Shown piece after piece: positions 31,113 to 36,454 of a DNA stretch of 37,755 bases (within the stretch, counting starts at the first letter, position 1; the number at the start of each line of letters is the position of its first letter). The stretch lies in assembly GCA_028285065.1 (NCBI GenBank), contig JANQQG010000145.1:1-37755 (forward strand), read 5' to 3'. Source of the DNA: Phycisphaerales bacterium. Lineage in GTDB: Bacteria > Planctomycetota > Phycisphaerae > Phycisphaerales > UBA1924. The notes beneath the pieces were generated by a model. That model did not search any database and had not been told where the DNA came from. It saw nothing but the letters and a program-made list of their open reading frames with translations. Made by a program: the position numbers and the translations under genes.

Positions 31113-31595
31113 ATGCACGACGCCCACGACCCCCGCCGCCGCCATGCGACAGCCGACCCGGTCCCGGGCCTCGTCGCCCATGGAGGTGTCCACCCGCTTC
31201 CCGCGACCACCCCCCCAGCCAAGCGATCCGAAAGCCGGTATCGGTTCGGATACCGAATCCGCCTCGACGTCCCTGCGAGCCTGGGTTGCGACGTGCGGAT
31301 CACCGGACGCTCGTGGACGATCATCGACGCCGAAGCCAACCGGCGGGACGTCACCGGACGCGGCGTGGTCGGTCGTGAGCCCGACATCGGACCCGGCGAT
31401 CACTTCACGTACGAAAGCTCCGTCGAGCTTCCAACGCCCTGGGGGACCATGGAGGGATGGCTCGAATGTGAGGTTGCCGGTCGGGTGATCCGTGTCCCTG
31501 TGGCCCGCTTCGTGCTCGGCTCCGACCCCCGATCCGAGGTGTGTCCGAGGGACGGTGAATCGACTGCGGCCCGCGGCACGACTACATTCGGATGA
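31113..31595 (+). CDS. apaG: ApaG-domain protein with N- and C-terminal extensions
   Basis: A 160-residue protein whose core (about 41-135) is a clear ApaG/DUF525 domain: YRFGYRIRLDVP, VRITGRSWTIIDA, GRGVVGREPDIGPGDHFTYES and LPTPWGTMEGWLECE. ApaG is an Ig-like beta sandwich; in E. coli it was linked to cobalt and magnesium tolerance, but its reaction is unknown. There are about 40 extra N-terminal residues and 25 after the domain. ATG 31113 has GGAGG ten bases upstream. The long track ORF from 30486 is antisense to CHAD. The stop overlaps the start of the cobalamin gene, and the -10 of that gene lies inside apaG. Confidence 0.85.
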   Translation: MHDAHDPRRRHATADPVPGLVAHGGVHPLPATTPPAKRSESRYRFGYRIRLDVPASLGCDVRITGRSWTIIDAEANRRDVTGRGVVGREPDIGPGDHFTYESSVELPTPWGTMEGWLECEVAGRVIRVPVARFVLGSDPRSEVCPRDGESTAARGTTTFG

Positions 31596-32662
31596 TGCCC
31601 GCGACGCAGCAGATGACCTCCCAACTCCTCGACGCCAGCCGAGCGGGGTATGCGGCCCTGGCCGCCGAGCGACTGCTGGAGGAGCATCCGGACCTCGGCA
31701 CACGCTTCGGCCCACGCTCGTTCAACGCCTGGCGCGAGAACTTCGCGGGACGGCTCAGCGAGCTGAGCACGAGCGTGCTGACCAACGACCCCGAGTTGTT
31801 CGCGGATCAGGTCGCGTGGGCGAAGGTCGCATTCGTTGCCCGCCGCGCCCCTGTCGGTGATCTCGAGATCAGCCTCCGCTGCCTCGGCTCCGTGCTCGAG
31901 CGTGAACTCCCGCCCGACGCGTGGCGCGACGTCGCGGCCTGCATCGAGCGTGCGCTCGAGCGCCTCGCGAATGCACCCGAGGAAGTCCCCTCCTCGCTGA
32001 GCGCAAGCACGCCGCACGGCAAGCTCGCCGCCCGGTACGTGCACGCCCTGCTCGAAGGCGACCGTCGGCGCGCAACCCAGATCGTGGTCGAGGCGGTGGA
32101 TCGCAACGAAGTCGACGCCCGCTCGGCATACCTCGACGTCCTCGTGCCCGCCCAGCACGAACTCGGACGCATGTGGCACATGAACGAGATCAGCATCGCC
32201 GAAGAGCACTTCGTGACCTCGACGACGCTCCGCGTCATGGCCCTGCTGGCTCAACGCATGCCAGTCGGCGAGCCGAACACCAAGACGCTCGTCGTCTGCT
32301 CCGTCGCGGGTGACACGCACGCGATCGGTGTCAGGCTCGTCGCCGACTTCTTCGAGGCCGACGGCTGGCGCGTCATCGACCTCGGCGCGGACGTGCCCCG
32401 CGAAGACGTCGTCGCGGCCGCGCTCGCGTTCAGCGCCGATCTCGTTGCGCTCGCAGCCACCCTCGGCTCACACCGACGCACCGCGAGCGAGACCATCGCG
32501 CTCGTCCGCAAGGACTCCCCCTCGACGAAGGTCCTCGTGGGAGGCCAGGCCTTCGCGGGCGAGAACGACGTGTGGAAGCAGGTCGGCGCCGATGCCTGCG
32601 CAGGATCACCGGACGACGCAATCCGCATCGGACGCGAGCTCGTCGGGCTGACGAGCGCCTGA
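31592..32662 (+). CDS. Cobalamin-binding protein with CarH-type photosensor residues
   Basis: A 356-residue cytoplasmic protein. Residues about 1-130 are an unrecognised helical domain. Residues about 140-220 form the helical cap of a B12-binding module and 230-350 the Rossmann B12 domain, with DTHAIG (241-246) giving His243 as lower cobalt ligand, and LAATLGS and VGGQAF completing the site. The cap carries Trp195-His196 and Glu205-His206, the W-x9-EH signature of CarH/LitR light sensors, including the His that replaces adenosyl after light. No MerR DNA-binding domain is present. TACATT ends 3 nt before the first ATG and 6 nt before the next (31595), so 31595 may be the true, leaderless start. 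Confidence 0.85.
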   Translation: MMPATQQMTSQLLDASRAGYAALAAERLLEEHPDLGTRFGPRSFNAWRENFAGRLSELSTSVLTNDPELFADQVAWAKVAFVARRAPVGDLEISLRCLGSVLERELPPDAWRDVAACIERALERLANAPEEVPSSLSASTPHGKLAARYVHALLEGDRRRATQIVVEAVDRNEVDARSAYLDVLVPAQHELGRMWHMNEISIAEEHFVTSTTLRVMALLAQRMPVGEPNTKTLVVCSVAGDTHAIGVRLVADFFEADGWRVIDLGADVPREDVVAAALAFSADLVALAATLGSHRRTASETIALVRKDSPSTKVLVGGQAFAGENDVWKQVGADACAGSPDDAIRIGRELVGLTSA

Positions 32663-34939: not shown

Positions 34940-36454
34940 ATGAATGCGCCCGGGTTCGACATGAGTTTCTCGTTTGGCGGTCCGGGTCGCTCTCCTGTCC
35001 GGCGCGATCCGACCTCTCCCATGGTGATCGCACTGGTCGCCGACTTCTCCGGGCGCGCCTCGCGCAGCCAGGTGGGATCGCCCGACGAGATCGCCGCGAG
35101 ACGCCCGCTCCGCTGCGATGTCGACAACCTCGATGCGCACATGGAGCGCCTCAGCGTGCACATCACCCTCGGCCAGGGCGCCGGCGCCGACGAGATCCGC
35201 CCGACCGAACTCGACGCCCTCCACCCCGACGAACTCTGGCGCACCCTCTCTGTCTTCGACGCGATGCGCACCCTCCGCAAGCGCCTGACAGATCCGGCGA
35301 CCTCCCACGAGGCCTGCCAGGAGGTCCGAGCCTGGGCCGGCGAGGCCGCGCCCGACACCGACGGAGCACCCAAACCGGAGCCCGCTTCGCCCGCGGACGA
35401 CTTCGAACGCCTCCTCGGCGCCGAGGCGCCCGGGCCGAGCGCTGGCGCGATGCGTCCGGACGTCGACGCGTTCGTCCGAGCGCTGGTCGGCCCTCACGTC
35501 GTGGAGAGTGCCGATCCCGATGCCGCACGCCTGACGCAGGTCGTCGATCAATCGATCACGGAGGCGATGCGCCGGGTCCTGCGCGATCCCGGTTTCCGCG
35601 CCACCGAACGCGCCTGGCGCAGCGCACAACACCTGATCACGACGCTCGAGACAGACGAGACGTCGCTGCGCGTCCTGCTCGTCGACATCAGCGCACACGA
35701 GCTCGAGGCCGACCTGCGCGCGCACGCCGACGACCCGGCGCGCTCCGGCATCGCGCGCCTGCTCCGTTCGATCGCGCAGCAGGGTGACCCCGTCTCGATG
35801 CTCGCCCTTGACCGTGTGTTCGGCGCATCAGCCGGCGATGCCGCAATGTGCGCACGACTTGGCGCGATCGCGGCGGAAGCCGGAGCCGCGCTGCTGGCGG
35901 GCGCGAGCTTGGCGCTCGCGGGTTGCCCGTCGCTCCGCGATGCGCCCGACCCGATCGACTGGCAACCCGGTGTCGCGGGTACGGACGAGGACCAGGCCGC
36001 CTGGGGCGAGCTGCGCTCGATGGCGTGCGCCACCTCGATCTGCCTCGCCTGCCCGAGGTTCATGCTCCGCGCGCCCTACGGCCCCTCGGACCCGATCGAT
36101 GCCTTCGACTTCGACGAGGTCCCGAGCCTCGACGACCATACGGGGTACCTCTGGGCGCCCGGCTCGCTGCTGTGCGCGCAACTGCTCGGCGAGGCGTACT
36201 CGAGCAGCGAAGGGCGGGGATTCGCACCGGGCGCCGGCGAGGTCGGCTCGCTCCCGATGCACAGCGTGCGCGAGATGGGCGAGTCCGCAATGAAGCCGTG
36301 CGCCGAGGCGTGGCTGACCGACCGAGCCGCCGATCGCATGGCCGACGCCGGCCTCTGCCCGTGTCTCTCGATCAAGGGGCGCACCGGCGTCCGCGTCGCG
36401 TCGATGCGATCGATGGCCGTGGCAGACGGGCGATTGCTCGGACCGTGGGGCTAA
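34940..36454 (+). CDS. TssB-TssC-like single-chain contractile-sheath protein
   Basis: A 504-residue protein that joins two sheath subunits. Residues about 27-131 resemble TssB/VipA (MVIALVADFSGRASR, RRPLRCDVDNLDAHMERL, LHPDELWRTL). A Pro/Asp linker (about 135-155) leads to a TssC/VipB-like part: AWRSAQHLITTLETDETSLRVLLVDISAHEL (225-254), CPRFMLRAPYG (371-381) and ADAGLCPCLSIKG (468-480). It stops where TssC normally continues into its C-terminal sheath domain, so roughly 100 residues are missing. ATG 34940 has GGGAAGGGAG upstream, and TAGACT at 34913 may be its -10. There is no other type VI gene in the window. Function as a sheath is inferred. Confidence 0.78.
   Translation: MNAPGFDMSFSFGGPGRSPVRRDPTSPMVIALVADFSGRASRSQVGSPDEIAARRPLRCDVDNLDAHMERLSVHITLGQGAGADEIRPTELDALHPDELWRTLSVFDAMRTLRKRLTDPATSHEACQEVRAWAGEAAPDTDGAPKPEPASPADDFERLLGAEAPGPSAGAMRPDVDAFVRALVGPHVVESADPDAARLTQVVDQSITEAMRRVLRDPGFRATERAWRSAQHLITTLETDETSLRVLLVDISAHELEADLRAHADDPARSGIARLLRSIAQQGDPVSMLALDRVFGASAGDAAMCARLGAIAAEAGAALLAGASLALAGCPSLRDAPDPIDWQPGVAGTDEDQAAWGELRSMACATSICLACPRFMLRAPYGPSDPIDAFDFDEVPSLDDHTGYLWAPGSLLCAQLLGEAYSSSEGRGFAPGAGEVGSLPMHSVREMGESAMKPCAEAWLTDRAADRMADAGLCPCLSIKGRTGVRVASMRSMAVADGRLLGPWG

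What the first reader, a model, noticed from the sequence alone, without database searches (positions are those of the whole stretch)
31592..32662. Stand-alone CarH-type cobalamin photosensor without a MerR domain
The protein keeps W-x9-EH and the His directly after that Trp (W195-H196, E205-H206), plus DxHxxG with His243. In Thermus CarH the same positions (W131-H132, E141-H142, H177) form the adenosylcobalamin light switch, but CarH is fused to a MerR DNA-binding domain. Here the N-terminus is an unrecognised helical domain, so light or cobalamin state must be passed on through a partner or through that domain. CarH numbering is from memory.
Basis: partly seen in the sequence, partly recalled or inferred. 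Interest (0 to 1): 0.8.

Follow-up and report, generated by a model that had tools for sequence, protein, structure and literature searches.

The report
B12 light sensor with phycobiliprotein-like domain
The gene encodes a probable light sensor that uses vitamin B12 as its pigment and carries, in front, a relative of the pigment-holding domain of cyanobacterial light antennae; this makes it an uncharacterised branch of the known 'photocobilin' family rather than a lone CarH with an unknown domain.

Summary
ORF 31592-32662 (356 aa, Phycisphaerales, Planctomycetota) has W195-H196, E205-H206 and DxHxxG with H243, and the full published light-responsive signature GxxW/EH/GxxH/GxxxP. A family profile of residues 9-128 matches the biliverdin-binding globin domain of the photocobilin SasPcob (8J2W, E=1.9e-9), and a model of it (pLDDT 97.5) matches phycobiliproteins, smURFP and SasPcob. 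The protein is a stand-alone photocobilin in the globin-first order, an arrangement already noted in the literature (PMC10979010, PMC11796333). Two features differ from characterised members: it keeps the CarH-type distal His (H196; SasPcob Gln, AbDPcob Tyr), and its bilin site is altered (Asp270 to Asn50; Trp47 at the phycobiliprotein Cys position). Among 91 globin-containing relatives the distal His occurs in 58 of 70 with Trp47 and 0 of 21 without; this marks one clade, not repeated coevolution. Predicted mechanism: dark AdoCbl-bound oligomer; light cleaves Co-C; bis-His cobalamin forms; the oligomer loosens and signals to a protein partner. Biliverdin binding is uncertain, and no partner is identifiable here.

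The parts
31592..32662 (+). globin-first photocobilin, 356 aa (alternative start ATG 31595)
   Evidence: ORF; Pfam; AlphaFold model pLDDT 95.5, pTM 0.90
31601..31972 (+). photoglobin / biliverdin-binding-type globin domain (residues 4-127)
   Evidence: profile A1 vs 8J2W E=1.9e-9, 8J2Y E=1.1e-3, then allophycocyanins; domain model pLDDT 97.5, best matches phycobiliproteins, SasPcob and smURFP at about 2.2-2.4 A over about 120 columns
31730..31732 (+). Trp47, at the Cys position of the bilin-attachment motif (CxRD/CxQD); 25/25 in close relatives, 70/86 in globin-first relatives
31739..31741 (+). Asn50, at the position of SasPcob Asp270, the key biliverdin ligand
31817..31819 (+). Trp76, equivalent of SasPcob Trp296 (biliverdin D ring); 85/86 globin-first and 6/6 globin-last
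31841..31843 (+). Arg84, equivalent of AbPcob Arg297 in the bilin pocket; 78/86 and 6/6
32027..32248 (+). four-helix cap of the cobalamin-binding domain (B12-binding_2)
32174..32179 (+). Trp195-His196 (TtCarH W131-H132): adenosyl stacking and predicted distal light-state ligand
32204..32209 (+). Glu205-His206 (TtCarH E141-H142)
32288..32623 (+). Rossmann cobalamin-binding domain (B12-binding)
32318..32320 (+). His243 (TtCarH H177), lower axial cobalt ligand, in DxHxxG
31113..31595 (+). ApaG-domain gene overlapping the photocobilin start by 4 bases (ATGA); possibly co-transcribed, partnership not shown
   Evidence: Pfam ApaG E=5.8e-20; overlap read

Best explanation
The gene encodes a stand-alone photocobilin in the globin-first order: an N-terminal phycobiliprotein-like photoglobin domain followed by a CarH-type adenosylcobalamin domain. 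In the dark, AdoCbl binds base-off with His243 below the cobalt; its adenosyl group stacks on Trp195 and is held by Glu205-His206, and this keeps the protein in an oligomer. Green light breaks the Co-C bond, the adenosyl group leaves, and His196 moves in to give a bis-His cobalamin, as His132 does in CarH. The helical cap shifts and the oligomer loosens. The photoglobin domain lies next to the cobalamin domain, may or may not hold biliverdin, and with the altered surface passes the state on to a protein partner. Shown here: domain identities, motifs, predicted fold and conservation. Inferred from solved relatives: AdoCbl binding, photolysis, bis-His state, oligomer change, domain packing. Unknown: the partner, the output, and whether bilin is bound.
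For: Complete light-responsive signature, absent from 20,000 shuffles and from the other five cobalamin domains of the genome. N-terminal profile hits the SasPcob globin domain (E=1.9e-9), then AbPcob, then allophycocyanins; fold search agrees. The cobalamin domain of the model lies on SasPcob at 1.9 A over 207 columns. 98 of 138 retrieved loci share the globin-first order, and the same profile finds the globin domain C-terminal in all six actinobacterial relatives. The genome encodes a heme oxygenase and a cobalamin adenosyltransferase, so both chromophores are plausible. In the same phylum the module is fused to HisKA-HATPase-receiver domains, as a sensor would be. His132 of CarH is required for light-state disassembly (PMC10442372).
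Against: No light response, cofactor binding or oligomer was measured. Asp270 of SasPcob is Asn50 here, and Trp47 sits at the bilin Cys position, so biliverdin may not bind. Heme oxygenase does not track the gene across relatives: 15 of 25 carriers and 39 of 76 non-carriers have it (my count). The neighbourhood offers no conserved partner. Five of 25 close relatives lack H196, so the bis-His step is not universal.
Confidence: 0.8

Rival explanations
1. Green-light-only sensor: the photoglobin domain has lost bilin binding (Trp47 fills the pocket, Asp270 lost) and serves as a structural or output domain, so light is sensed by AdoCbl alone with a CarH-like bis-His switch. This is a sub-case of the best explanation that differs only in the bilin.
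For: Asp270 position is Asn50 and variable across relatives; Trp47 invariant in close relatives; heme oxygenase does not track the gene and is found in only 1 of 8 carriers outside the window's own family; AbDPcob, with His at this position, binds biliverdin only weakly.
Against: Trp76 and Arg84, which line the SasPcob/AbPcob bilin pocket, are nearly invariant; the genome has heme oxygenase; the fold keeps the phycobiliprotein shape.
Confidence: 0.45
2. A corrinoid carrier protein for a methyltransferase (MtaC/MttC/MtgC type) rather than a photoreceptor.
For: Same two Pfam domains; sub-threshold NCBIfam matches to MtgC and pyl_corrinoid.
Against: Those matches fall far below their curated cut-offs (63 versus 310-370 bits); the W-x9-EH light signature is present and invariant; no methyltransferase of that kind was found beside it; an N-terminal phycobiliprotein-like domain is unexpected there.
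Confidence: 0.04
3. A cobalamin-state or oxygen/redox sensor that responds to AdoCbl level rather than to light in vivo.
For: Photolysis is intrinsic to AdoCbl, and in CarH the final light state needs oxygen; the organism's light exposure is unknown.
Against: The Trp/Glu-His adenosyl pocket and the photoglobin domain are those of proven photoreceptors.
Confidence: 0.15

Closest known systems
Photocobilins SasPcob (8J2W/8J2X) and AbDPcob (8J2Y), PMC10979010
   Same: CarH-type AdoCbl domain plus a phycobiliprotein-like globin domain; conserved Trp296 and pocket Arg equivalents; stand-alone like SasPcob
   Different: Globin domain is N-terminal here, C-terminal there; distal residue His196 here, Gln or Tyr there; Asp270 is Asn50 here; Trp47 at the Cys position
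CarH (Thermus thermophilus)
   Same: W131-H132, E141-H142 and H177 all present with identical spacing; predicted bis-His light state
   Different: No MerR DNA-binding domain; photoglobin instead
Photoglobins and BBAG globins (Schneider et al. 2022, not held; PMC10151467)
   Same: Bilin-type globin fused or linked to a B12 domain; globin-first members with a Cys motif (CVED) found here in Azospirillum and Skermanella (L169, L168)
   Different: Cys replaced by Trp and Asp by Asn in the window protein
AerR (SAerR/LAerR, Rhodobacter capsulatus, PMC9144470)
   Same: B12-binding co-regulator without its own DNA-binding domain that acts through a partner (CrtJ); light-state upper His ligand in LAerR
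   Different: LAerR has a 40-residue N-terminal extension with a flexible tail whose His10 is the ligand; here a folded globin domain and a candidate ligand inside the four-helix cap

Membership tests
Photocobilin | Light-responsive CBD signature GxxW, EH, GxxH, GxxxP | tested here: met
   Residues 192-195, 205-206, 240-243, 265-269
Photocobilin | Photoglobin (phycobiliprotein-like) domain fused to the CBD | tested here: met
   Profile E=1.9e-9 to the 8J2W globin domain; fold search
Photocobilin | Biliverdin ligand Asp (SasPcob Asp270); not strictly defining, since AbDPcob has His | tested here: not met
   Asn50 at that position
Photocobilin | Binds AdoCbl and biliverdin together, responds to green and red light | not testable with these tools
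   Needs purified protein
CarH (MerR-CBD repressor) | N-terminal MerR DNA-binding domain | tested here: not met
   No MerR match in Pfam; CarH equivalog score 66.8 versus cut-off 400; N-terminus is a globin
CarH (MerR-CBD repressor) | Distal His (H132) for the bis-His light state | tested here: met
   His196, ungapped alignment
Corrinoid methyltransferase carrier | Score above curated family cut-off | tested here: not met
   MtgC 63 versus 310-370 bits, pyl_corrinoid 57.6 versus 215
AerR | Co-transcribed CrtJ/PpsR partner and short flexible N-terminal extension | tested here: not met
   No such neighbour among the ORFs scanned; N-terminus is a folded globin domain

The most novel reading that the evidence does not exclude
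A clade of globin-first photocobilins in Planctomycetota and Pseudomonadota combines a CarH-type bis-His light switch with a photoglobin domain whose bilin-anchoring site has been rebuilt around Trp47. The photoglobin would then act as the transmitter of the cobalt-ligand change, or hold bilin in a new way, rather than as a SasPcob-like biliverdin antenna.
Probability: 0.4. Interest if true: 0.6.

Novelty: new variant of a known kind. Interest (0 to 1): 0.42.

Why it matters
The solved photocobilin light state (SasPcob) has a water/hydroxide-ligated cobalt and only modest changes, and both characterised photocobilins lack the distal His. This clade would show whether the large CarH-type rearrangement can be coupled to a phycobiliprotein-like domain, which bears on how B12 light signals reach partners other than DNA and on the design of red/green optogenetic switches.

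Tried and rejected
(1) Conserved genetic partner: all-against-all comparison of neighbouring ORFs in about 70 loci found no partner shared across the family; lineage-specific linkages only. (2) Heme oxygenase as a proxy for bilin use: no association with the gene. (3) Trp47-His196 coevolution: strong raw association (Fisher p=1.6e-12; 2.2e-5 in the subset not picked by a sequence pattern), but the tree needs only two changes of Trp47 and independent pairs are too few to test, so it is reported as a clade marker only. Part of the wider set was retrieved with a pattern containing WH, which favours His. (4) Large ORFs around L151 and L156 looked like fusions, but their extra length appears to be open high-GC frame over neighbouring sequence; only L152 and L157 are supported by Pfam as histidine-kinase fusions. 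(5) The genome-contig scan with 23 diverse sequences failed for lack of a conserved stretch; five closer ones were used. (6) Docking of cobalamin or biliverdin was not done: no model coordinates are available to scripts.

Full report
Observation. The ORF at 31592-32662 (+) gives 356 residues. Pfam finds B12-binding_2 at 146-219 and B12-binding at 233-344 and no MerR domain. The alignment with T. thermophilus CarH runs without a gap through the motif, and the CarH numbering given from memory agrees with the papers. The complete published light-responsive signature (GxxW, EH, GxxH, GxxxP; PMC11796333) is met and occurs in none of 20,000 shuffles and in none of the other five cobalamin domains of the assembly. 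In 25 full-length proteins (the window and 24 from the same family and order) W195, E205, H206 and H243 are invariant and H196 is kept in 20.

The N-terminal domain. A single-sequence Pfam search says nothing useful about residues 1-130, which is why the domain seemed unrecognised. A single-sequence search of the PDB already hinted at the answer: residues 25-103 match the C-terminal domain of the photocobilin SasPcob (8J2W, stretch E=0.004). A profile of residues 9-128 from 25 sequences makes it firm: SasPcob 1.9e-9, AbPcob 1.1e-3, then allophycocyanin subunits. AlphaFold on the same alignment gives a seven-helix domain at pLDDT 97.5, and the 50 listed PDB matches are phycobiliproteins, smURFP and SasPcob. 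The full-length model has pLDDT 95.5, and its cobalamin domain lies on SasPcob at 1.9 A over 207 columns.

What it is. [quoted passage not shown] PMC11796333 reports further biliverdin-domain/CBD fusions. The window protein is therefore a stand-alone, globin-first photocobilin. In my sample 98 of 138 loci have the globin-first order, 34 have no recognised globin domain, and six, all actinobacterial plasmid loci, have the SasPcob order; the same profile recognises the globin domain in both orders. The foundational photoglobin paper (Schneider et al. 2022) is not in the library, so I cannot say what it already reports about these residues.

What differs from the characterised photocobilins. First, the residue after the Trp is His here, as in CarH, but Gln in SasPcob, Tyr in AbDPcob and Arg in CtMerR, and Ala in the six actinobacterial relatives. 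In CarH this His forms the bis-His light state and is needed for disassembly; SasPcob reaches a water/hydroxide-ligated state with modest changes. Second, the bilin site is altered. SasPcob Asp270, the main biliverdin contact, aligns with Asn50, and the position of the phycobiliprotein Cys (CxRD; photoglobins CxQD) aligns with Trp47. Relatives in Azospirillum and Skermanella keep a Cys there (CVED). Other pocket residues, Trp76 (SasPcob Trp296) and Arg84 (AbPcob Arg297), are nearly invariant; I mapped these author numbers onto the chain sequences by counting offsets from the named residues. Third, the two features go together: His196 occurs in 58 of 70 proteins with Trp47 and in 0 of 21 without; in the subset not chosen by a sequence pattern, 24 of 33 and 0 of 11. 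On a tree built without those two columns Trp47 changes only twice and His196 ten times. This is a clade with a signature, and not independent evidence of coupling.

Mechanism. By analogy with CarH and SasPcob: dark AdoCbl-bound oligomer, green-light Co-C cleavage, loss of the adenosyl group, His196 ligation, cap movement, oligomer change. Because there is no DNA-binding or enzyme domain, the output must pass through a partner. SasPcob can act on another protein in trans. Relatives suggest a general sensor module with lineage-specific outputs: direct fusion to HisKA-HATPase-receiver domains in two planctomycetes; PP2C-photocobilin-STAS gene order in Streptomyces plasmids; an RND efflux operon running into the photocobilin in Rhodospirillaceae and some Gammaproteobacteria, and an ECF sigma factor gene 9-19 bases downstream in other Gammaproteobacteria. 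In the window the only close neighbour on the same strand is an ApaG-domain gene overlapping by four bases; ApaG lies within about 1.6 kb in a few other members, but no function is implied.

Chromophores. The assembly encodes heme oxygenase and cobalamin adenosyltransferase. Across 101 genomes, heme oxygenase is found in 15 of 25 carriers and 39 of 76 non-carriers (counted), so it does not track the gene. I rate biliverdin binding at about even odds.

Verdict. Observation confirmed; interpretation partly supported. It is a member of a known family, with a combination of residues not seen in the two characterised members, which makes a specific and testable prediction: a bis-His light state in a photocobilin.

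Noticed in passing
L078, L079, L080, L083, L085, L089, L100, L105: HlyD-type gene, AcrB-type RND pump gene and globin-first photocobilin in one apparent operon, with the pump stop at or overlapping the photocobilin start, in Rhodospirillaceae and Gammaproteobacteria: a possible light-regulated efflux system.
   Followed up: partly
L081:6408-6977, L082:4861-5406, L084:7065-7610: ECF sigma factor gene 9-19 bases downstream of the photocobilin in Gammaproteobacteria.
   Followed up: partly
L152:1336-3747, L157:151-2547: Photoglobin-CBD fused to HisKA, HATPase_c and receiver domains: hybrid histidine kinases with a photocobilin input.
   Followed up: partly
L167, L172, L173: PP2C phosphatase - photocobilin - STAS gene order on Streptomyces plasmids, consistent with partner-switching control.
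   Followed up: no
window 34940-36454: 504-aa protein with a strong VipB sheath match (E=3.4e-34) and a weak VipA-like match in its N-terminal part; no PHROG match, and no other secretion genes recognised beside it.
   Followed up: partly
window 31113-31595: ApaG-domain gene overlaps the photocobilin by four bases; ApaG is also near the photocobilin in L036, L039/L068 and L076.
   Followed up: partly
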